64,000 nucleotides of DNA, taken from NCBI RefSeq assembly GCF_943736985.1, contig NZ_CALSFS010000014.1:1-64000 (forward strand), written 5' to 3'. This DNA comes from Clostridium sp. Marseille-Q2269. GTDB taxonomy: Bacteria > Bacillota > Clostridia > Clostridiales > Clostridiaceae. Within the stretch, counting starts at the first letter, position 1; each line of letters starts with the position of its first letter. Under the pieces are notes generated by a model, which saw nothing but the letters and a program-made list of their open reading frames with translations, made no database searches and was not told where the DNA came from. Positions 2,805-53,102 of this stretch are shown one piece after another. The position numbers and the translations under genes were made by a program.

Positions 2805-4268
2805 TTAAGCACTTTGTGTTTTAGAATGACTATCTTCTATATCAAAGTTTACATCTTTTAAATTAATAACTTTTGTTTTATGTTTTATTTTATATCCAAA
2901 CCACAAAACAAAGAATATTGGTAATCCTATATAAGATGCTATTATTCCATTCCAATCAATCTTAGCAGCTTCAAAATAACTAGCACCTTGTCCCAAAATA
3001 ACAATTATACATAGTACTAATGCTATTATTGGACCAAGTGGGAATAATTTTGCTTTATAAACAAGCTTCTTTAAATCATATCCTTGAAACACATATGCTT
3101 TACGAAAACGATAATGACATAGTGCTATTCCAGCCCAAGCAATAAATCCTGCAAGTCCTGATGCTGCAACAAGCCACACATAAACAGTAGTTTCAGCATA
3201 AATGCCTGTTAAAAAACAAGCTGATGCTACTAAAGTAGTTAATGCCAATGCATTTACCGGAACTCCCCTTGGATTAAGCTTTCCTAACCATTTAGGAGCT
3301 TTTCCTTCTTTAGCCATTGCATATAACATTCTACTTGAAGCATACATTCCTGAATTTCCACAGGATATTACTGAAGTTAAAATAACTGCATTCATTAATG
3401 ATGCTGCAGCTGCAATACCAGCTCTTTCAAATACTAATGTAAATGGACTTGTATTAACTCCTGCATCTGTATAAGGTATTATTGCACTTACAACAAATAT
3501 TGTTCCTAAATAAAAAACTATAATTCTCCAAAATATTGTATTAATTGCTTTGGGTATAGTTTTATCAGGATTTTCACTTTCACCAGCAGCTATACCTACC
3601 AACTCTGTACCTTGAAAAGAAAAACCTGCAATTAAAAATATCATAAAAATAGATTTAGCGCCCCCAACAAATGGAGCATCTTTAATAGTAAAGTTTTTAA
3701 GTCCTACAGTATGTCCCCCTAATATACCCATAATAGTTGCAATACCTATTAATAAAAATACAATAACAGTAAATACTTTAATACCTGCAAACCAATATTC
3801 TGATTCTCCATAAGCTTTAGCAGATAATAAATTAAGTCCAACTATTAATATAAGAAATAGAACACTCCAAATAATAGCAGGTACATTAGGAAACCAAAAT
3901 TTCATAATTAGTGATCCAGCAACCATTTCAGCCGCAACTGTAATAGCCCAGTTATACCAATAGTTCCATCCAAGTGCAAATCCAAATGCAGGATCTACAA
4001 ATTTTGAAGCATAGGTCTCAAAGGAACCAGACACAGGCATAAAGGTAGCCATCTCTCCTAAACTTGTCATTAAAAAGTAAACCATAACTCCTATACAGGC
4101 ATATGCAGTAAGTGCTCCTCCAGGACCTGCCTGCTTTATAGTAGCACCTAGTGCTAAAAATATTCCTGTTCCTATGGCTCCACCCATAGCTATCATATTA
4201 AGATGTCTTGCTTGTAAGCTTCTCTTAAGCTTATGTGAACCAGAATTATTTTCTTTTGTATTACTCAT
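2805..4268 (-). CDS. lysP: lysine-specific amino acid permease (APC superfamily)
   Basis: A 487-residue membrane protein of the AAT family of the APC superfamily. It has 12 predicted membrane segments, a cytoplasmic N-terminus with LKRSLQARHLNMIAMGGAIG, the TM1 glycine motif GGAIGTGIFL (about residues 30-39) and the family stretch AGFSFQGTELVGIAAGE in TM6. These features match LysP-type symporters that import amino acids with protons. The substrate is supported by the leader, which carries a lysine riboswitch with a terminator, so expression should fall when lysine is abundant. Length and domain order are normal. It is a single-gene unit with its own terminator. Confidence 0.88.
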   Translation of the reverse strand: MSNTKENNSGSHKLKRSLQARHLNMIAMGGAIGTGIFLALGATIKQAGPGGALTAYACIGVMVYFLMTSLGEMATFMPVSGSFETYASKFVDPAFGFALGWNYWYNWAITVAAEMVAGSLIMKFWFPNVPAIIWSVLFLILIVGLNLLSAKAYGESEYWFAGIKVFTVIVFLLIGIATIMGILGGHTVGLKNFTIKDAPFVGGAKSIFMIFLIAGFSFQGTELVGIAAGESENPDKTIPKAINTIFWRIIVFYLGTIFVVSAIIPYTDAGVNTSPFTLVFERAGIAAAASLMNAVILTSVISCGNSGMYASSRMLYAMAKEGKAPKWLGKLNPRGVPVNALALTTLVASACFLTGIYAETTVYVWLVAASGLAGFIAWAGIALCHYRFRKAYVFQGYDLKKLVYKAKLFPLGPIIALVLCIIVILGQGASYFEAAKIDWNGIIASYIGLPIFFVLWFGYKIKHKTKVINLKDVNFDIEDSHSKTQSA

Positions 4269-4356: not shown

Positions 4357-4400
4357 TAAAGTATGCATTTATATGTACAAATACATTTTAATTCCACAAC

Positions 4401-4575
4401 GAATGATAGCTCCCCACAAATTATTTTTGTGACAGTTTTGTATATATTTTATACAAACCCAGCAACACAACATTAAAGCATTTGTTGTATGCTTCGGCGA
4501 AAATTCCTTTCAAACTGCTTCTCAGTGCTTATCTCCACAATTTTACTCTTAAAGTTCGCTCCTCTACCTCAGTTA
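4401..4575 (-). promoter_or_regulatory. lysine riboswitch (L-box) aptamer
   Basis: Read on the minus strand the element contains, in order, the conserved L-box blocks GGTAGAGGAGCGAACTTTAA, AGAGTA, CGCCGAAG, TGCTGG, CTGTCAC and GGGGAGCTATC. The first and last blocks can pair as P1. These are the signature motifs of the lysC-type lysine aptamer. It is followed by an intrinsic terminator and then by the lysine permease gene, a common target of this class. Confidence 0.92.
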
Positions 4576-41871: not shown

Positions 41872-43461
41872 TTAAATTTTTACGCCTAAAATCTTCAATT
41901 GTTCATTAATCTCAGCTTCAAGCTCAGCAATTTCCTTATTATCTTGCTCTAACAGCTTATTTATTTCTTCTAAATCAATTGGTTCTTCTTCCTCAAAAGT
42001 ATCAACATAACGTGGTATGTTTAAATTAAAATCATTTTCTCTAATTTCTTCAATAGATGCTAAATGAGCATACTTTTCAACGTCTTTGCGTTCCTTATAT
42101 GTTTTTATTATTTTATCAATATCTTCATCTCTTAAATTATTTTGATTTTTATTCTTTTCAAAATCATTACTTGCATCAATAAATAATATATCTTTATTTT
42201 CACGATTCTTCTTTAACACTAAAATTACTGTTGGAATACTTGTTCCATAAAATAAATTTGCTGGTAATCCAATTATTGTATCAAGATAATTTTTACCAAT
42301 TAAAGTTTCTCTTATTTTTCCTTCTGCTGCACCTCTAAACAAAACTCCATGAGGTAAAACAATAGCCATTGTTCCAGTCTTATTTAAATGATATATACTA
42401 TGCAATATAAAAGCATAATCTGCTTTTGAAGCTGGTGCTAACTTCCCATATTCACTAAAACGTGGGTCTTTTAATTTAGTTGAATCATTATCCCATTTTG
42501 CCGAATATGGTGGATTTGCAACTACTGCATCAAAGCTACGTGGATGATCAATACCTTTTGCATCTGGACCATCTGGCCAATCACTTTCCAAAGTATCAGC
42601 ATTACTTAATACCATATTGTTATAAGATATACCATGCATCATCAAATTCATACGTGCCAAGTTATATGTAGTTGTATTCAATTCTTGACCAAAGTACTTT
42701 ATTGGAGTGCCTTTTGGTAATTCTTGACCTACAGTAAGTAATAAAGAACCTGATCCCATTGTTGGGTCATATACACTAAATAATTCATCTGATTTTTCTA
42801 CGCCTTCTGTTACTACTTTAGCTAAAATCTTACTTACTTGATGTGGTGTATAGAATTCTCCACCCTTTTTACCAGCACTAGCCGCAAATTGACCAATTAA
42901 GTATTCATATATTTCACCTAAAATATCTTTTCCATCATTACCTTTGTATTCAATACTATCAACTAACTTTACTATATTGTTAAGTGATTTAGCGCGTTCA
43001 TTTGTAGAACTTCCAAGACGAGAATCTCCTAAATTAATATCATTAAATACTCCGCGGAAATCTTTTACTGCTTCTTTATTTAATTCTGCATTTTTATTAA
43101 AGTTATCAAAAATAGTTTGATAGTCACTAGGAATAACTTGTGAATCATTAATTTTATCAATCAATGACTGCCATGTATCCTTTGGAGTAATTGCATATCC
43201 TAAGCTTGCTGAAATATCTTGCAGATAATCTTCTAACTCTGACTCATCTACTTGTGAATTATAGGATTCATTAATAGACTCCCCATCTATAACGTCAATA
43301 ACATTATTCTTTAACAAATACTCCTCTTGATGTTCTGATAAATATCTATAAAACATAAATGCCAATATATAATTTTTGTACTCTGATGCATCCATCGTTC
43401 CACGTAATTCATTTGCCATTGCCCATAATTTATTAGTAATTGATTGTATATTATTGCTCAT
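41872..43461 (-). CDS. hsdM: type I restriction-modification methyltransferase subunit
   Basis: 529 residues. The HsdM N-terminal helical domain (about 5-150; KLWAMANELRGTMDASEYKN) is followed by the N6-adenine methylase domain with AdoMet motif DPTMGSGSLL (about 232-241) and catalytic NPPY (about 316-319). A coiled C-terminus (about 495-525) should contact HsdS. It methylates adenine at the recognition site set by HsdS. Gene order here, HsdM last, is unusual. All key residues are present. Confidence 0.95.
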   Translation of the reverse strand: MSNNIQSITNKLWAMANELRGTMDASEYKNYILAFMFYRYLSEHQEEYLLKNNVIDVIDGESINESYNSQVDESELEDYLQDISASLGYAITPKDTWQSLIDKINDSQVIPSDYQTIFDNFNKNAELNKEAVKDFRGVFNDINLGDSRLGSSTNERAKSLNNIVKLVDSIEYKGNDGKDILGEIYEYLIGQFAASAGKKGGEFYTPHQVSKILAKVVTEGVEKSDELFSVYDPTMGSGSLLLTVGQELPKGTPIKYFGQELNTTTYNLARMNLMMHGISYNNMVLSNADTLESDWPDGPDAKGIDHPRSFDAVVANPPYSAKWDNDSTKLKDPRFSEYGKLAPASKADYAFILHSIYHLNKTGTMAIVLPHGVLFRGAAEGKIRETLIGKNYLDTIIGLPANLFYGTSIPTVILVLKKNRENKDILFIDASNDFEKNKNQNNLRDEDIDKIIKTYKERKDVEKYAHLASIEEIRENDFNLNIPRYVDTFEEEEPIDLEEINKLLEQDNKEIAELEAEINEQLKILGVKI

Positions 43462-43493
43462 TATTTTTATTTCCTCTCTTTTATTAATTTGCT

Positions 43494-44729
43494 TTAGATA
43501 AACATCTGTTGTAAAAGTGCCTTCTTTTGTTGTTGTAAATGCTCTAACTTACGCTGATGAATGGTGATAAGGTTTGATAATTTTTCAATAAAGTCAACGA
43601 TTCTATTTTGTTCATCAATATCATGAGGAACGCAAATATTGCCTTCCAGAAATCCTAAATCAGTAATGTTAACATTGTTCCTTGCCCCGACATTAACTAA
43701 TGGATATAAATAGGCATCCAATCTACTCTTATCCTCAAAATAACTTTGAATAATGCTAGAATTAACATCAGAAACACTATTATAAACGCAATATAAAGAT
43801 GGAACTATACCTTCTATTCCTTTATTTGTCTTAATAATTCCATTTGGATAACCTTTGATAGGAGATTTTGTGTATATAACATCTCCTTTATTTACTATAC
43901 GGTAATTTTTAATTGATTCTTCTGTTGAACGTAGTCCAAAAAAGATATGTTTTTTTGTTAGTTCTGTACCTAATGATGCAGCAAGAACATCATCTTGAGT
44001 ATATTTACCTGTATTATTTTTTTCAGTAGACGGGATTAATAACTCTCCCAATTTACGCTGTTCCCACGGGCCAGTAAATCCCTGAAAACGAAGTTCTGGA
44101 AAATTTTCACCATTTCTAGGAAACATTTTTTGCAGCAAACTTTTCTTCTTATCTTGTAAGTGATTTAACTTACGCTGATGAAGGGTGATAAGGCTATCGA
44201 GATTTTGAAAAAAGTTACCTATTTTCCTCTGCTCCTTTTTTGATGTGCTAGTCATTACTTCTAAAGATAACAAACATTCTGGACTAACTGATTGCCTTTT
44301 TGTAACGGTTCCTTCTTCAAATCTAAGTGCCTTTGATTTGAAATTTTCAGTTGTAACAATTCTTTCTATAAATGAAGGTTCTTCTTGTGTTGTGAAAGTC
44401 ACATATATAGGAGAAATCACGCCTTTTCCATACTTATTTCTATCAATCGCTCCATATTTTAGATTAGCAGGATTATAGACAATATCATCAATTTCTGTAA
44501 GCAGATATTTTTTGGTAGTTTCATCTGAAATCAACTGGTCTCTATTATTTGTTTTTCTTTCTCTTAAAGGAATTACACCTTGCCCAGAAGCAAATGCAAG
44601 TCTTGGAGCATCTTCTGAAATTAATTGTGTTATTTGTCTTCTTTTAAGTATGTCTCCCAACTTACGCTGTTCCCAAGGGTCGGTGAATCCTGGAAATCTT
44701 AGCTTTGGTTTATTGTTGTTTTTTCCCAT
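43494..44729 (-). CDS. hsdS: type I restriction-modification specificity subunit (two TRDs)
   Basis: The start is ATG 44727-44729 after AAAGGAG, overlapping the rhuM 3' end by 20 bases. About 411 residues. There are two target-recognition domains, each beginning FxGFTxPWEQRKLG (about 10 and 217), and each followed by a coiled spacer of the HQRKLxHLQxxKKxLLQxMF type. The two halves carry nearly identical DNA at these blocks (for example 43544-43572 and 44159-44187), giving sites for recombination that would swap TRDs. It determines the DNA sequence for HsdM and HsdR. Confidence 0.93.
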   Translation of the reverse strand: MGKNNNKPKLRFPGFTDPWEQRKLGDILKRRQITQLISEDAPRLAFASGQGVIPLRERKTNNRDQLISDETTKKYLLTEIDDIVYNPANLKYGAIDRNKYGKGVISPIYVTFTTQEEPSFIERIVTTENFKSKALRFEEGTVTKRQSVSPECLLSLEVMTSTSKKEQRKIGNFFQNLDSLITLHQRKLNHLQDKKKSLLQKMFPRNGENFPELRFQGFTGPWEQRKLGELLIPSTEKNNTGKYTQDDVLAASLGTELTKKHIFFGLRSTEESIKNYRIVNKGDVIYTKSPIKGYPNGIIKTNKGIEGIVPSLYCVYNSVSDVNSSIIQSYFEDKSRLDAYLYPLVNVGARNNVNITDLGFLEGNICVPHDIDEQNRIVDFIEKLSNLITIHQRKLEHLQQQKKALLQQMFI

Positions 44730-45726
44730 TGTTAACTCCTTTAATCCTTCTGATCTCCTTATCAAAATCAGAAACTATTTTTTGATTTTTGTTAAACTCT
44801 TGATATTCTCCTATTGCCTTTTCTTTAGCAGTGCTATGGGAAATACGTCCATGACCTTTTAAGATTTCATAACGATTGAATTTCAAAAATTCATCAATAC
44901 TTATCGCAAAATCTTCCATAGATAACAACGTTTCATCTTCAAGAAGTCGCTCAACATAGTCGAAATAAGCTGAGACGTTACGTTCAAGGCCCCTAATTTC
45001 CTTTTCTGATAAGTAATTTTTAGCCACAAGCACATCAGACTGCAAAATTCGGCCATTAGGAGAGTTCTTCCAAGTAGTAAGCCCCATATGTTCTTTATCT
45101 CTATCTGAACTATTATAAATAATTTCTGCAGCTGTTTTACCAGTTATTCCAAAATGAAATTTATTTTGAATAATTGCATAAAATTTTTTTGTGATTTGTG
45201 AATTTTTATCGTAGTCATATGAAATTTCTGCAAACACATCTGTGATTTGTTGCCAAATTCTACGTTCACTTGCTCTAATTGAGCGTACAGTTTCAAGTAA
45301 CTCACGGAAGTAATCTTTACCCAAAACATTCTCACCTTGCTTCATGCGCTCAACATCAATCTTAAATCCTTTTTTGATATAGTCTTTCAAAATATCAGTG
45401 GCCCAAATTCTAAATTTTGTTGCTTTTTGAGAATTAACACGGTAACCAACTGAAATAATGGCATCTAAATTATAAAACTTGACCTGTTTTGTTTGGGTTT
45501 TTCCTTCTATAGCGCCGTGCTTTGTGGTATTTGCCAAAACGGAAACAACCACTTTCTCATCAAGCTCTTCAGACTGAAAAATGTTTTTAAAATGTTTGCT
45601 TATAGCAGAAACACCCACACCAAAAAGCTCAGATATAGCTTTCTGTGTCGCCCAGATTGTTTCATCTTTCATCACGACTTCGATTTTTTCATATTCATCA
45701 TACATTAAAAATTGTATCTCGTTCAT
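44710..45726 (-). CDS. RhuM-family protein inside the type I R-M operon
   Basis: 338 residues. The N-terminal part (about 15-110) has an HTH-like stretch, TQKAISELFGVGVSAISKHF, and RhuM hallmarks VKFYNLDAIISVGYRVNS and ATKFRIWATDILKDYI. The rest (about 140-280) is helical and contains the RhuM/Fic-like extension FAEISYDYDKNSQITKKFYA. RhuM was named in a Salmonella pathogenicity island, and its biochemical role is unknown. Genes of this family often sit inside type I R-M operons. Here it is between hsdR and hsdS, 12 bases from hsdR, and overlaps hsdS, so it is co-expressed. Confidence 0.9.
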   Translation of the reverse strand: MNEIQFLMYDEYEKIEVVMKDETIWATQKAISELFGVGVSAISKHFKNIFQSEELDEKVVVSVLANTTKHGAIEGKTQTKQVKFYNLDAIISVGYRVNSQKATKFRIWATDILKDYIKKGFKIDVERMKQGENVLGKDYFRELLETVRSIRASERRIWQQITDVFAEISYDYDKNSQITKKFYAIIQNKFHFGITGKTAAEIIYNSSDRDKEHMGLTTWKNSPNGRILQSDVLVAKNYLSEKEIRGLERNVSAYFDYVERLLEDETLLSMEDFAISIDEFLKFNRYEILKGHGRISHSTAKEKAIGEYQEFNKNQKIVSDFDKEIRRIKGVNNGKKQQ

Positions 45727-45738
45727 TTAATCACCTTC

Positions 45739-48700
45739 TTAATTTTCTACTAACTCATCAGCTAATTCATAAATGGCCTCACGCAAACCGTTGCGGTACT
45801 TGATTTTAGATAAGGCTTGTACATCTTTGCTGTGTGCTAAAGTCTTGTAATCCACGCTTGCTTTTGCAATTATATCTCGAATTTGACCAGTATCATCTAA
45901 ATCTTGCACGCCATAACGATGGGGACTAAACAATTGGCGCATCTCTGCACTTGTAATAATATCTGTAATTCCCCATTTTACTCTAAAATCTAAGAATAGT
46001 CTATCAATACTTACATTGCTAGCCGCTTGAATAATTTGCTCACTATGGCTAAGCTTTACTGGATATTTAAGATTAGTACCCTCCGGCGGATAGTACCCTT
46101 TGATAATAGCCATTGCTGCATTTATAATTTTCATCGCGTAATTTCTATCATCTAATCCATTAGCAAATTGATCAATTCTCTCTTTCGTAGCTTGTGCTTC
46201 CTCTTTCTTACCATCATGTACTTGATTTAATAATTGTTCTACCAATTCAGTTAAATAATCATAATCTATTTTTACATCCTTCACATGAGTCATTTTTAAC
46301 TCAATTTGATAAAAAGGAATTTTCTTTTCTTTTGATATATGTTGTTTAAGCTCATTGGTTAAAACTGTAGTAAGCATAGTTTCCTCTTCACTTGTCATGC
46401 CTAATTTTTCAACTAATTCATCAGGATTTTCATAATTGAAACCTACTGCATTTCCATCAACTTCTTCAGAGTTGTATTGCTTAAGTTTTGCCATACCAGC
46501 ATTGTAATCACGTATTAATTCAAGCATATCTTCCTTTTTTTTCTCCGAAGGTGGTAATTGTTGAAATTCATTAGTTAAATCACTTAATTTTTTAACTGTC
46601 TCTTTTACTTCATTAAATACCTCTTCAAAAGGTTTTGCTACAATTCCATCTTTTTCATTAGCTTTACGTTGCTCCTCATCTGATAAAATTGCAGAATCCT
46701 TATTTGCATAAATTGCCAAAGCCTTATTCATAAGCTTCTCATTATATGCGGGCCAACGATAATTTACAATACGCCCCCAAGGTTTTTCTTGCATATCAGC
46801 AATACGATTTGTTCTTGAATAGGCTTGAATAAGTCCAGCCCCTTTAAGTGTTCTATCTACATAAAGGGTATTAAGTTCTGGTGCATCAAATCCAGTCAAA
46901 AGTTGATCTACCACAATTACAATATCTAAGTAATTCTTATCTGTAGCAGTTTTATTCAGACGACTAGTAACATCTTGTGTATATCCTGCTACATCATCCA
47001 TGCCAAAGCTTGTACTAAATTCTTTATTATAAATATCTATCGCTTCAAATAAGCCTTTATTAGTTTCAAGCATACTATCATTATTGGAAGTATTTAAACT
47101 AAATGTAATTGCAACCTTCAGTACTTGTTTGTCATTCTTCCTATTCTCATCATTTACTCGCTTAAACTCTCTAAAATACATCATCGCCATTGGTGTACTA
47201 GCCTTTCCGCCGCCTACATGCGTTGTAAATAATGCATTATACTTACCTTCATTTGAACGATTTCTCCAGTTAGTAAAGATATCTTCAACTACAAGTTTTA
47301 CATGGTCAAGATTTTCATCATAAAAACTTGGTTCAACTGCATCATCCATATCTTCTTGACTTAGATTATTAATCTTTTCTATAATTTTTTCTTCAGTCCA
47401 CTTTGGATAACGTTCTCTGTAAAAGTTTGGTAGGTATTCTAATTTCATTTGTTCTTCATCAATTGTTGTTTCAAAATCAACTTTAAAACCCAAAACATTT
47501 CTATCTGCTATTGCTTCACGAATGGTATAAGCATGTAAAAGTGGTCCAAAAATATCTTCAGTTCGTAAACCACTAGTAGTCTCATCAAACATTGGTGTTC
47601 CTGTATAACCAACCCAAGCAGACTTTTTAAAAGCCTTTTGTATCTTTTCAAAACTTTCACCACCAGTTGAACGATGTGCCTCATCCACGATAAATACAAT
47701 ATTTTTATCAGGTGATTTAAAAGACTTACGTTTTACTAAGGTATCAAGCTTTTGAACAGAAGTAACAACAATATTATTATCTTTGCTCTTTAGTTTACGA
47801 CTTAAATCATTAGTATTATATGTATTTTGAACACTGCCAATGGTATCTTCACTAGCATCTGGATCATATGCTCTATAATTTTCATTTGTTTGTTTTGTTA
47901 AAGCAATTCTATCTACCACAAATACTACTTTATCAACTTTAGGCATACGACTTGCAAGCCAAGCTGTTTTAAAACTAGTTATTGTTTTACCAGAACCAGT
48001 AGTATGCCAGATATAACCTACTTTATTTGTACCAAACTCAAAATCAACTCGTTTTAAATTTTCAATTACATTCTGGGTAGCATATACTTGATATGGGCGC
48101 ATTACCTTTAGCATTTGTTTGTTTTTTGTGCCATCCAAAATCATATAATTAGTAGCCATTTGATGTGCCATTGGAATACTTAACATTGAATCAGCAAACT
48201 CTTTCCAATTACGTACAATGGTATTATCACTTTTACGTTGCCAGTTAAAAGCAAAGTCTTTATTAAACTTATCTGATGTGGTATTAGCCATATACTTCAC
48301 GTTATTTGGTGTAATTGCCACCAATATTTGCAGAGTAGAAAAAATATCCCGATATTGGTTTTCCTCAGAATATTGATGCATTTGATTTAGTGCTTCATTG
48401 ACATCATGTGTATCACGTTTTTCTTCAATTTGTATTATAGGTAAACCATTAATAAGAAGTGTCGTATCAAAACGACGATTTTGTTTTCCAGTGATAACTG
48501 CAGGACGTTCAATCTGATTAACTACTTGATACACTGTATCTCCAGCACCAATTTGTTTTTGATCAAAAACTGTTAAAAACACGTGACGACCGTCATCTAA
48601 GTCAATTTCCATTTGTGATACCCCATTAAGTCCATATAAAAATTGTCCAGCTTCATATGGTGTTTGAATATTAGATATAATCTTTTTCACTTGATTAAAT

Positions 48701-48948
48701 TCTACAGTACTTAAAGGATGATCAAGTGTATTTTGATTGTGCCTCTCAAGAATCTCTTTAAAGTTGTCCCAAAGCTTTTCTGTAGTTTTAATTTTTGGTT
48801 CATACTTCCACAGTTTTGTTTTTATACAGTAATCAGCAGGTTTTTCTCTAACAATAAAATCACTGATTCCTTCTAGGTGTTCAGGTTTAGTTATTGTTCC
48901 ACTGGTAATATACTGTATTAACTCAGTTTCAAATTGCTCTTCATTCAT
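45739..48948 (-). CDS. hsdR: type I restriction endonuclease / translocase subunit
   Basis: 1069 residues. The N-terminal PDDEXK nuclease (about 90-190) has DTTLLINGLPIIQIEEKR, giving the D...ExK catalytic residues. The SF2 motor follows with Walker A HTTGSGKTITSF (about 315-326), VDEAHRS (about 421), GYTGTP (motif III) and QAYSRTNR (motif VI). The helical C-terminus should bind HsdM. It cleaves unmethylated DNA at a distance after translocation. All key motifs are intact. Its start overlaps the half-HsdS stop by four bases. Confidence 0.96.
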   Translation of the reverse strand: MNEEQFETELIQYITSGTITKPEHLEGISDFIVREKPADYCIKTKLWKYEPKIKTTEKLWDNFKEILERHNQNTLDHPLSTVEFNQVKKIISNIQTPYEAGQFLYGLNGVSQMEIDLDDGRHVFLTVFDQKQIGAGDTVYQVVNQIERPAVITGKQNRRFDTTLLINGLPIIQIEEKRDTHDVNEALNQMHQYSEENQYRDIFSTLQILVAITPNNVKYMANTTSDKFNKDFAFNWQRKSDNTIVRNWKEFADSMLSIPMAHQMATNYMILDGTKNKQMLKVMRPYQVYATQNVIENLKRVDFEFGTNKVGYIWHTTGSGKTITSFKTAWLASRMPKVDKVVFVVDRIALTKQTNENYRAYDPDASEDTIGSVQNTYNTNDLSRKLKSKDNNIVVTSVQKLDTLVKRKSFKSPDKNIVFIVDEAHRSTGGESFEKIQKAFKKSAWVGYTGTPMFDETTSGLRTEDIFGPLLHAYTIREAIADRNVLGFKVDFETTIDEEQMKLEYLPNFYRERYPKWTEEKIIEKINNLSQEDMDDAVEPSFYDENLDHVKLVVEDIFTNWRNRSNEGKYNALFTTHVGGGKASTPMAMMYFREFKRVNDENRKNDKQVLKVAITFSLNTSNNDSMLETNKGLFEAIDIYNKEFSTSFGMDDVAGYTQDVTSRLNKTATDKNYLDIVIVVDQLLTGFDAPELNTLYVDRTLKGAGLIQAYSRTNRIADMQEKPWGRIVNYRWPAYNEKLMNKALAIYANKDSAILSDEEQRKANEKDGIVAKPFEEVFNEVKETVKKLSDLTNEFQQLPPSEKKKEDMLELIRDYNAGMAKLKQYNSEEVDGNAVGFNYENPDELVEKLGMTSEEETMLTTVLTNELKQHISKEKKIPFYQIELKMTHVKDVKIDYDYLTELVEQLLNQVHDGKKEEAQATKERIDQFANGLDDRNYAMKIINAAMAIIKGYYPPEGTNLKYPVKLSHSEQIIQAASNVSIDRLFLDFRVKWGITDIITSAEMRQLFSPHRYGVQDLDDTGQIRDIIAKASVDYKTLAHSKDVQALSKIKYRNGLREAIYELADELVEN

Positions 48949-49520
48949 TTCTCACATGCCTCCTCTAACTTGGATAATCTGATTTTTGTTTCAAGTTCTG
49001 CTGTTCTATTTCTAAGGGCTTGTAGCCTTAATTGATTAAAATAAACTTGTCCTATAATTTTTTGCTTATCTATGGAAGGTATTTTCGGTATTTCAAGCTG
49101 TTTAAGTTGCTTTAGAGTATATTTTAAAACTTGAGACCCTTGTAGTCCCAGAACAAACTGTTTCTTGATTGTTCTGTTTTCATTAATAAGATAAACTAAA
49201 AACTTTGAATCAATTTTATTGCTAGGTAATAACTTAACGTAGTTTTGCGTATAAATATATCCATCATGCTCTTTTCTTACTATAGTTGCAATTCCCGTGA
49301 TTAAACTAAATACTACATCACCATGGCATAAGGTATTTAATTTATCATTGGTTCTGACTTGTTTATTGACCACAGTTTTTGAAATAATACCTACCAAATC
49401 ATCTGTTAAATCTGTTTGACTATAATAAGTAAAAAGAGGTGTTTTTTCATCAAACACTTCAGTAATTCTAAACTGAGGCGACCCACTTACTAACTCAACT
49501 AATTTGCTTAACTTTTCCAT
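48945..49520 (-). CDS. single-TRD specificity-like subunit (half HsdS)
   Basis: 191 residues with only one target-recognition domain, ending in a coiled C-terminus (RNRTAELETKIRLSKLEEAC). The core SGSPQFRITEVFDEK and LGLQGSQVLKYTLKQLKQLE with PKIPSIDKQKIIGQVY fit HsdS TRDs. A normal HsdS has two TRDs. Single-TRD forms can act as homodimers recognising palindromic sites. It is the first gene of the operon. It may give the system a second specificity, or bring a separate targeting function. Confidence 0.8.
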   Translation of the reverse strand: MEKLSKLVELVSGSPQFRITEVFDEKTPLFTYYSQTDLTDDLVGIISKTVVNKQVRTNDKLNTLCHGDVVFSLITGIATIVRKEHDGYIYTQNYVKLLPSNKIDSKFLVYLINENRTIKKQFVLGLQGSQVLKYTLKQLKQLEIPKIPSIDKQKIIGQVYFNQLRLQALRNRTAELETKIRLSKLEEACEK

Positions 49521-49778: not shown

Positions 49779-49812
49779 CAAAAAACACTAAAAGCCACTG
49801 AAATCAGTGACT
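49779..49812 (-). terminator. terminator of the tmRNA gene
   Basis: AGTCACTG and CAGTGGCT pair over ATTT, with a T-rich stretch following on the minus strand, about 30 bases after the tmRNA CCA end. Confidence 0.75.
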
Positions 49813-49859
49813 TTCTATTGTATCAATATTATAGTTTATGTATGGTGGAGGCGAGGGGA

Positions 49860-50148
49860 CATGTTATTCCATTATCTCTAATGGCACTGACTATATCTTA
49901 TGGTGAAAACTTGTAAGTTTTCATCATCTTGGCATGTTATAGAAGTTATATTATAGTTTTAAACTTCTATCCTAGTATTTCTTACTTAAGAAAATTTTAT
50001 TTCTTAAGGTTAGAAACCTATGAGTCGATACACGGCTGTTGGGTTTCCCCACATACCACTCGGTATTGCCGACGCCTTTACGTTTCGGTTTCACCGATAA
50101 AGCCAAGTTTTCACTTATGAATTACTTCATAAGGCGACTCTCTTTTGA
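49860..50148 (-). ncRNA. group I intron in the tmRNA T-loop, 289 nt, no ORF
   Basis: Core elements read on the minus strand: P (GTGGGGAAACCC), Q (CAACAGCC), R (GTGTATCGACTCATA) and S (AAGATATAGTCA), in the classical order, the R/S pair forming P7 with the guanosine site. P1 pairs the 5' exon CGAT with GTCG at 50134-50137 in the intron, with the U-G pair exactly at the splice site. The intron ends in G (49860). Splicing therefore joins ...GGGGTTCGAT to TCCCCTCG. No homing endonuclease is encoded, and 289 nt is close to the minimum size. Self-splicing should be required for tmRNA function. Confidence 0.92.
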
Positions 50149-50359
50149 ATCGAACCCCTGTCCGAAAGCAGCAACCCCTGAGCATCTCCGAGTGCAGTTT
50201 ATCCTTTTACATTCCCTCCTCTAAGCGCCGATAAACAGGCTCTTAGATTTAGTAGCTTCATTAATTCCGTTCCTTACTCAAAGCTTTGTAAGGCTCGGGA
50301 CCCCACTGTCGACGCCAGGCCCTAAGTCGTGGGTCTCTTAGGCTGACGAGCTGCAACTA

Positions 50360-50389
50360 TTAGGCAGCTAATGCAAAATTATCGTTTGC
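50360..50389 (-). CDS. tmRNA tag peptide reading frame
   Basis: Resume codon GCA, then AAC GAT AAT TTT GCA TTA GCT GCC and TAA: ANDNFALAA. It ends in the LAA-type degron recognised by ClpXP and matches clostridial tags. Confidence 0.93.
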   Translation of the reverse strand, partial: ANDNFALAA

Positions 50390-50549
50390 GATTATCTTTA
50401 AGTTCCCAGTTTTTTAACGCAGGTACAGGATCCCTTCGACTCGCTTCTCAGGAGCAACTTGCCCCCGTCGAAACCATTGCGCCCCCATATTATAAAAATT
50501 TATATGGTTTTTGCAACGATATTTACATATTAAATTTTTTAGTATCTAT

Positions 50550-51289: not shown

Positions 51290-52453
51290 ATGAAAAAATT
51301 GTTTGATAATTTAATTTTCAAACTTGTTCTTGGAGTTATCATAGGTATACTAATTGGTTCCTATGCTTCCAAGGCTACAATAGGTGTAGTAATTACCATA
51401 AAATATGTTTTGGGTCAAATTATTTTCTTTGCTGTACCTTTAATAATATTAGGTTTTATAGCACCTTCCATAGCTAGACTAAAACAAAATGCTAGTAAAT
51501 TCTTAGGTATAACAGTGCTTATTGCTTATATTTCTTCTGTGGCAGCTGCATTTTTGTCTATGGTTACTGGTTATGCCTTAATTCCTAAACTTTCCATAGC
51601 ATCTAACCCAGAAGGTTTGAAAAAATTACCAGAATTAATATTTAAATTAGACATACCACCTATTATGAGTGTTATGAGTGCTTTGGCTTTAGCCTTATTA
51701 TTAGGTCTAGCTACTGGATGGAGTAATTCAGATTTGGTTGAAAAATTATTAGATCAATTTCAAAATATAGTTTTAAGTATAGTAAATAGAGTTGTTATAC
51801 CTATACTACCATTTTTTATAGCAACGAATTTTTCAGCTTTAGCTTATGAAGGAAGTCTAAGTACACAATTACCAATATTTTTAAAAGTTATAATTATAGT
51901 TTTAATAGGTCATTTTATTTGGCTTACTGTTCTTTATTTAGTTGGAGGAGCTATTTCAAAAGAAAACCCATGGGAAGTATTGAAGCACTATGGACCTGCC
52001 TATCTCACAGCAGTGGGAACTATGTCTAGTGCAGCTACTTTGCCTATAGCTTTAAACTCTGCTAAAAAATCATCAGTTCTTAGAGAAGATATTGTTGATT
52101 TTAGCATACCATTATGCTCTAATATTCACTTATGTGGTTCTGTTTTAACAGAAGTTTTCTTTGTAATGACAGTTTCTCAAATCTTATACGGTAAATTACC
52201 ACCTTTTGGTACTATGCTATTATTTATATTATTACTAGGTATATTTGCAATTGGAGCTCCAGGGGTTCCGGGCGGAACAGTTATGGCGTCTTTAGGATTA
52301 ATCATCAGTGTGTTATCCTTTAACGAAGCTGGTACTGCACTAATATTAACTATATTTGCCCTTCAAGACAGTTTTGGAACTGCATGTAATGTAACTGGAG
52401 ATGGTGCTATAGCACTAATGCTTACAGGTATTGCTAAGAAAAAGAATTTATAA
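51290..52453 (+). CDS. DAACS-family amino acid:cation symporter
   Basis: A 387-residue membrane protein with about eight helices and re-entrant loops. Family features: ATLPIALNSAKK (the re-entrant serine-rich type), GAPGVPGGTVMASLGLI and DSFGTACNVTGDGAIAL (binding site, about 360-376). GltP/SstT relatives import glutamate, aspartate, serine or threonine with Na+ or H+. A T-box leader controls it, so its amino acid should be one whose uncharged tRNA signals need. Whether that is Ser, Thr or another cannot be fixed from sequence. It is transcribed alone between tmRNA and smpB. Confidence 0.85.
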   Translation: MKKLFDNLIFKLVLGVIIGILIGSYASKATIGVVITIKYVLGQIIFFAVPLIILGFIAPSIARLKQNASKFLGITVLIAYISSVAAAFLSMVTGYALIPKLSIASNPEGLKKLPELIFKLDIPPIMSVMSALALALLLGLATGWSNSDLVEKLLDQFQNIVLSIVNRVVIPILPFFIATNFSALAYEGSLSTQLPIFLKVIIIVLIGHFIWLTVLYLVGGAISKENPWEVLKHYGPAYLTAVGTMSSAATLPIALNSAKKSSVLREDIVDFSIPLCSNIHLCGSVLTEVFFVMTVSQILYGKLPPFGTMLLFILLLGIFAIGAPGVPGGTVMASLGLIISVLSFNEAGTALILTIFALQDSFGTACNVTGDGAIALMLTGIAKKKNL

Positions 52454-52631: not shown

Positions 52632-53102
52632 TTAATATTTACTTCTTTCTTTAATCTGTCTATCTATTTCTCTTTTTGCTGCTTTTTCTAGCATAACATC
52701 TCTCTTATCATAATTTTTCTTACCCTTAGCCACAGCTAAACTAACTTTTACTCTTCCATGCTTAAGGTATAATGATAGAGGAACTAGCGTGTATCCTTGT
52801 TGAGTTGTAAATCCTACCAACTTATATATTTCGCTTTTGTGAAGTAATAATTTTCTATCTCTTAAGGGATCTTTATTATATATATTACCTTGCTCGTAAG
52901 GACTTATATGCATATTTCTAACAAAAACTTCTCCATTTCTAATATCAGCATAACTATCTTTCAAATTTGCTTTTCCTTGCCTTATAGATTTAACTTCTGT
53001 TCCTACTAATTCTATACCTGCTTCATAGGTTTCTTCTATAAAATAATCATGCCTTGCTTTTCTATTTTCTGCAAGAGTACTGTTTCCCTTCTTTTTACTC
53101 AT
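52632..53102 (-). CDS. smpB: SsrA-binding protein SmpB
   Basis: 156 residues, normal length. Family features: [20 protein letters not shown] (about 10-29), [24 protein letters not shown] and the basic tail. SmpB binds tmRNA, positions it in stalled ribosomes and is needed for tagging. The cognate tmRNA gene is 2.1 kb away, split by the T-box transporter gene. It is the last gene of a minus-strand run (rnr, surE, smpB) but separated from surE by 87 bases. Confidence 0.97.

What the first reader, a model, noticed from the sequence alone, without database searches (positions are those of the whole stretch)
49860..50148. Group I intron in the T-loop of tmRNA
The intron has clear P, Q, R and S elements; P1 can be drawn with the U-G pair at the exact 5' junction, the last base is G, and excision restores a perfect T-arm and a 355-nt tmRNA. 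Insertion in the T-loop means the 3' end of tmRNA cannot fold or be charged until splicing occurs, so ribosome rescue depends on splicing. I recall that tmRNA group I introns have been reported, so the class may not be new, but the case is rare.
Basis: partly seen in the sequence, partly recalled or inferred. Interest (0 to 1): 0.85.

Follow-up and report, generated by a model that had tools for sequence, protein, structure and literature searches.

The report
Known group I intron in tmRNA
The gene for tmRNA, the RNA that rescues stuck bacterial ribosomes, is interrupted here by a small RNA segment that almost certainly cuts itself out; this is real, but the same arrangement is already described in many bacteria.

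Summary
On the minus strand a tmRNA gene (50486-49843) is split in its T-loop by a 289-nt group I intron at 50148-49860. With the exons joined, ARAGORN reports a 355-nt tmRNA (tag ANDNFALAA); unspliced, it reports none. Rfam's general group I model scores only 27.8 bits (gathering score 50), but an alignment with 12 homologous introns at the same site in other Bacillota supports the core: 98.7% of cells pair, 36 of 75 pairs show changes on both sides, 0 of 500 shuffles reach these values.

It is not new. T-loop group I introns of tmRNA are in print: 883 unique sequences, most at loop position 7, predominantly in Bacillota (PMC11915505). A 287-nt Clostridium botulinum tmRNA intron, after a 338-nt 5' exon as here, is listed among introns previously shown to self-splice (PMC2729099, passages). 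In the family of one relative 46 of 206 genomes carry a strong match, so it is not rare in this group. That tmRNA cannot fold or be charged before splicing was not tested and is stronger than the evidence. Splicing of this copy was not observed. Verdict: an ordinary member of a known class.

The parts
50149..50486 (-). tmRNA 5' exon, 338 nt; starts GGGGGCG (acceptor strand), holds the tag frame ANDNFALAA, ends in the T-loop ...GGGGTTCGAT
   Evidence: RF00023 138.8 bits; ARAGORN on joined exons
49860..50148 (-). group I intron, 289 nt, begins UC and ends in G; longest stop-free run in six frames 67 codons
49843..49859 (-). tmRNA 3' exon, 17 nt: last T-loop base, T-stem strand, acceptor strand (with a G-U pair at the place that I recall as the alanine signal G3-U70), ACCA
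   Evidence: ARAGORN on joined exons; sequence
50135..50152 (-). P1: exon CGAU (50152-50149) with intron GUCG (50138-50135), U50149-G50138 at the splice site; extension 50148/50147 with 50139/50140
   Evidence: paired in 13 of 13; five of six pairs never vary, one changes C-G to A-U in 4 of 13
50114..50133 (-). P2 hairpin with GUAA loop
   Evidence: 5 of 8 pairs change on both sides
50102..50107 (-). P3, 5' strand (CUUGGC)
   Evidence: pairs with 49933-49928; 3 of 6 pairs change on both sides
49928..49933 (-). P3, 3' strand (GCCAAG)
50060..50097 (-). P4 (50097-50092 with 50065-50060) enclosing P5
   Evidence: all cells paired; P4 varies on one side only in 2 of 6 pairs, P5 never varies
50032..50059 (-). 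P6 and P6a with GAAA loop
   Evidence: 2 of 4 pairs in each helix change on both sides
50021..50026 (-). P7, 5' strand (GACU.A)
   Evidence: paired and invariant in 13 of 13
49889..49893 (-). P7, 3' strand (UAGUC)
   Evidence: paired and invariant in 13 of 13
49939..50017 (-). P7.1 and P7.2, extra hairpins between the 5' strand of P7 and the 3' strand of P3 (a mark of subgroup IA, recalled)
   Evidence: 2 of 5 and 5 of 9 pairs change on both sides; 2 of 13 rows have gaps in P7.1
49900..49927 (-). P8 hairpin
   Evidence: 9 of 11 pairs change on both sides, with gaps in up to 11 of 13 rows for the inner pairs
49861..49887 (-). P9.0 (49887-49885 with 49863-49861, next to the terminal G49860) enclosing P9 with GAGA loop
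   Evidence: P9.0: 3 of 3 pairs change on both sides; P9: 4 of 6
49790..49815 (-). terminator-like hairpin downstream of the tmRNA
   Evidence: consensus scan only
52632..53102 (-). smpB, the gene of tmRNA's partner protein, upstream of the tmRNA gene
   Evidence: PF01668 E=7.3e-64

Best explanation
[quoted passage not shown] Shown by comparison: the conserved core, the splice-site U-G pair, the terminal G with P9.0, and homologues at the same site. Inferred from what is known of group I introns: guanosine bound in the core cuts after U50149; the freed end of the 5' exon then cuts after G49860 and joins the 3' exon, giving a 355-nt tmRNA. Intron and 3' exon both begin with UC, so the UC that lengthens P1 before the first step can be exchanged for the exon's UC before the second. 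The intron has no room for an endonuclease gene and most likely persists as a near-neutral passenger, kept because a copy that fails to splice costs the cell its tmRNA.
For: Covariation on 13 sequences: 98.7% of cells paired (shuffles 86.7), 36 pairs with both-side changes (shuffles 22.0), covariation score 0.397 (shuffles 0.176), 0 of 500 shuffles reach any of these; slid versions pair 33.6 to 39.6%. Same-site homologues in 12 of 80 smpB loci by blastn. ARAGORN finds the 355-nt tmRNA only with the exons joined. Published class with the same boundary rules. The C. botulinum tmRNA intron is listed among introns previously shown to self-splice.
Against: Rfam Intron_gpI stays below its gathering score (27.8 against 50 bits). 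'Further standard pair types' is not above shuffles (196 of 500). P5, P7 and five of six P1 pairs never vary and P4 varies on one side only, so these give no compensatory support. The innermost P9 pair is unpaired in 5 of 13. No splicing was observed for this sequence.
Confidence: 0.96

Rival explanations
1. The insert is a decayed group I intron that no longer splices, and the gene is a tmRNA pseudogene.
For: Rfam score below threshold; a second tmRNA gene elsewhere cannot be excluded, as no whole genome is held for the window.
Against: All 75 drawn pairs are standard in the window copy; the columns that are invariant in the 12 relatives are kept; the joined exons make an intact tmRNA with tag and CCA; a terminator-like hairpin follows and smpB lies upstream.
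Confidence: 0.03
2. The intron works as a switch: splicing answers to GTP level or stress and so sets the amount of tmRNA.
For: The T-loop is rebuilt only by splicing (sequence); the intron is found across distant Bacillota.
Against: I saw no extra conserved element beyond the intron's own helices; 160 of 206 family genomes show no strong match, so lineages do without it; the passages read do not mention regulation.
Confidence: 0.03
3. The insert is a chance stretch rich in inverted repeats, or an island end, and not a ribozyme.
For: tmRNA genes are frequent integration sites of islands.
Against: Covariation and same-site homologues; the tmRNA 3' end is not repeated in the window apart from one 9-base match.
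Confidence: 0.005

Closest known systems
tmRNA group I introns at T-loop position 7 (PMC11915505, passages and section 12 part 1 read; the first report, Williams 2002, Nucleic Acids Res 30:179, is not held and was seen only in reference lists)
   Same: Insertion in the T-loop; U at -1 paired with G in P1; terminal G; 289 nt against a reported mean of 293 bp for 843 founding sequences; no endonuclease gene, as in 847 of 883; Bacillota-like host.
   Different: No difference found. The figure that numbers the loop positions was not held; that the window's site is their position 7 is my inference from a seven-base loop with internucleotide positions 1-8. The exact sequence could not be looked up in their database.
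Clostridium botulinum tmRNA intron (PMC2729099, passages read)
   Same: 338-nt 5' exon in both; intron 287 against 289 nt. ARAGORN labels the window's tag as matching the C. botulinum tag.
   Different: Sequences were not compared; that record was not fetched.
Rfam RF00028 Intron_gpI
   Same: Aligns over the whole model, positions 1-253.
   Different: Score below the gathering threshold; in that alignment the P7.1/P7.2 region is one large insertion.

Membership tests
Group I intron | U-G pair at the 5' splice site in P1 | tested here: met
   UG in 13 of 13; the pattern that cut the 12 relatives required CGAT before the intron, so only the G side is independent
Group I intron | Crossing P3 and P7 with P4-P6 and P8 | tested here: met
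   P3 3 of 6 and P8 9 of 11 pairs change on both sides; P4 one side only; P7 paired in all but invariant
Group I intron | Terminal G, positioned by P9.0 | tested here: met
   G49860; G in 12 of 12 relatives where the pattern allowed G or T; P9.0 3 of 3 pairs change on both sides
Group I intron | Rfam RF00028 gathering score (a curation threshold, not a structural feature) | tested here: not met
   27.8 against 50 bits; five relatives (L018, L011, L010, L059, L053) also gave no RF00028 hit at gathering
Group I intron | Guanosine-started self-splicing | not testable with these tools
   needs RNA
tmRNA intron, T-loop position 7 | Inserted between the sixth and seventh T-loop bases of an otherwise complete tmRNA | tested here: met
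   TTCGAT|T in the joined RNA; ARAGORN 355 nt; equation with the paper's position 7 is inferred
tmRNA intron, T-loop position 7 | Sequence homology to other introns at that site | tested here: met
   best blastn piece 74.3 to 83.6% over 127 to 293 bases in 12 of 80 loci, same site
Subgroup IA | P7.1/P7.2 between P7 and P3 (rule recalled) | tested here: met
   both helices show both-side changes

The most novel reading that the evidence does not exclude
Splicing is a real control point: because the T-loop is rebuilt only by splicing, GTP level or stress would tune ribosome rescue through this intron.
Probability: 0.03. Interest if true: 0.6.

Novelty: already known. Interest (0 to 1): 0.15.

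Why it matters
Little beyond annotation: ARAGORN misses this gene and Rfam's gathering thresholds report it without its 3' end and without the intron, so such genomes can seem to lack a complete tmRNA. That such introns gather in this one loop, perhaps by several founding events, is already discussed in print (PMC11915505).

Tried and rejected
Island at the tmRNA: a type I restriction cluster (41872-49520) lies just downstream of the 3' exon, but none of the 10 ORFs scanned matched an integrase family (two matched nothing), and the tmRNA 3' end is not repeated in the window save for one 9-base match. No island is claimed.

Descent against transfer: intron and 5'-exon distances agree across 23 loci (Mantel r 0.81, 0 of 2000 permutations as high), which fits mostly vertical descent; but presence is patchy, the nearest tmRNA exon by blastn among the 80 loci is without the intron (L009, 87.6%), and the intron and exon trees place the window differently. 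Left undecided.

Mobile carriers: no plasmid record matched. Two phage records did: an unannotated one at 67.2% over the tmRNA 5' exon part of the query, not the intron, and Enterococcus phage VRE9_3 with 36 bases of the intron's 3' part, next to a gene annotated as homing endonuclease. The second may be a phage group I intron; not tested further.

Host identity: the best enolase identity was 89% among 206 genomes of one family, 201 of which matched; best SmpB identity 85%. The window's organism was not identified.

Full report
Observation. Rfam's tmRNA model matches the minus strand at 50146-50478 with 138.8 bits and ends at the T-loop. ARAGORN finds no tmRNA in the window. On that strand the 5' exon runs 50486-50149 (338 nt), an insert follows at 50148-49860 (289 nt), and the 3' exon runs 49859-49843 (17 nt). 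With the exons joined ARAGORN reports a 355-nt tmRNA with tag ANDNFALAA; with the insert in place it reports none.

Is the insert a group I intron? Rfam's general model aligns over its whole length but at 27.8 bits, below its gathering score of 50; at gathering it is not reported. I therefore looked for homologues. blastn found relatives of the insert in 12 of 80, printed and cut. The cutting pattern required CGAT on the 5' side and allowed G or T as the last intron base; G was found in 12 of 12.

Covariation. On a sequence-only alignment of the 13 I drew P1, P2, P3, P4, P5, P6, P6a, P7, P7.1, P7.2, P8, P9.0 and P9 by hand, looking at the window copy and the relatives; all 75 pairs are standard in the window. 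Because the relatives were in view when I drew it, the structure leans somewhat towards them. The count: of 907 cells 98.7% pair (shuffles 86.7, sd 0.7); 36 of 75 pairs show a change on both sides (shuffles 22.0, sd 2.5); 134 cells with such changes (shuffles 42.3); covariation score 0.397 (shuffles 0.176). None of 500 shuffles reaches these four. Partners slid by 1 to 3 columns pair in 33.6 to 39.6% of cells. The fifth measure, further pair types, is not above shuffles (66 against 64.7; 196 of 500). P5, P7 and five of six P1 pairs never vary, and P4 varies on one side only. P9.0, which places the terminal G, has both-side changes in 3 of 3 pairs. I regard the fold as settled.

How it most likely works. 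Shown by comparison: the core, P1 with U-G, the terminal G. Inferred from what is known of group I introns: guanosine attack after U50149, then exon joining after G49860. Intron and 3' exon both begin with UC, so sliding the boundary by 1 or 2 gives the same joined exons, and the P1 extension of the first step can be exchanged for the exon's UC in the second. That extension changes from C-G to A-U in 4 of 13; in those four the intron begins UA, so the exchange is one base pair shorter. The longest stop-free run in six frames of the insert is 67 codons, on the opposite strand; an endonuclease gene is present in only 36 of 883 published cases.

The T-stem and acceptor strands are in the exons and P1 uses only loop bases, so these helices could pair in the precursor. 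In the passages that I read nobody tests whether the unspliced RNA can be charged. The T-loop itself is not intact before splicing, so dependence of function on splicing is a fair inference.

Distribution. A covariance model of the 5' half of the intron with its exon end (R1, built from the 13) matches those 13 and, at E up to 1, one weak opposite-strand place in L010 (18.3 bits) in the window and 80 loci. A locus without a match may simply not hold the tmRNA. In whole genomes R1 matches 50 of 206 in the family of G001 (the genome of L001, titled Clostridium peptidivorans), 46 of them at 126 bits or more and 4 at 42 bits or less; and 20 of 398 drawn from the phylum, 14 at 124 bits or more, 3 at 88 to 98 and 3 below 52. 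Both searches used stricter filters, which lose weak matches. Intron boundaries were cut by pattern in 25 of 33 sequences (that pattern required a terminal G); the other 8 I read by eye, and each allows CGAU before and G at the end, with A or C as first 3' exon base in 6 of the 8.

Known or new. PMC11915505 (passages, section 12 part 1) reports 883 unique intron-form genes among 97,179 unique tmRNA genes, all in the T-loop, most at position 7, predominantly in Bacillota, with the same boundary rules. PMC2729099 (passages) works with a C. botulinum tmRNA intron of 287 nt after a 338-nt 5' exon and lists it among introns previously shown to self-splice. The first report, Williams 2002, is known to me here only from reference lists; it is not held. 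Literature searches. The window's gene is an ordinary member of this class.

Noticed in passing
It might spread the intron from outside it.
   Followed up: partly
   Followed up: partly
L110 701-736 (Enterococcus phage VRE9_3, PP680569.1 136686-136721): 36 bases at 94.4% identity to the 3' part of the window's intron (about 49900-49865), shortly downstream of a gene annotated as homing endonuclease; possibly a related phage group I intron.
   Followed up: partly
window 41872-49520: Type I restriction-modification cluster (hsdM, hsdS, a RhuM-family gene, hsdR, a second, half-size hsdS) directly downstream of the tmRNA.
   Followed up: partly
window 4399-4574, minus: Lysine riboswitch (RF00168, 119.3 bits) upstream of an amino acid permease gene at 2805-4268.
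   Followed up: no
window 51290-52453, plus: A sodium:dicarboxylate symporter gene (PF00375) lies between smpB and the tmRNA, which in for example L001, L003 and L018 are under 200 bases apart.
   Followed up: no
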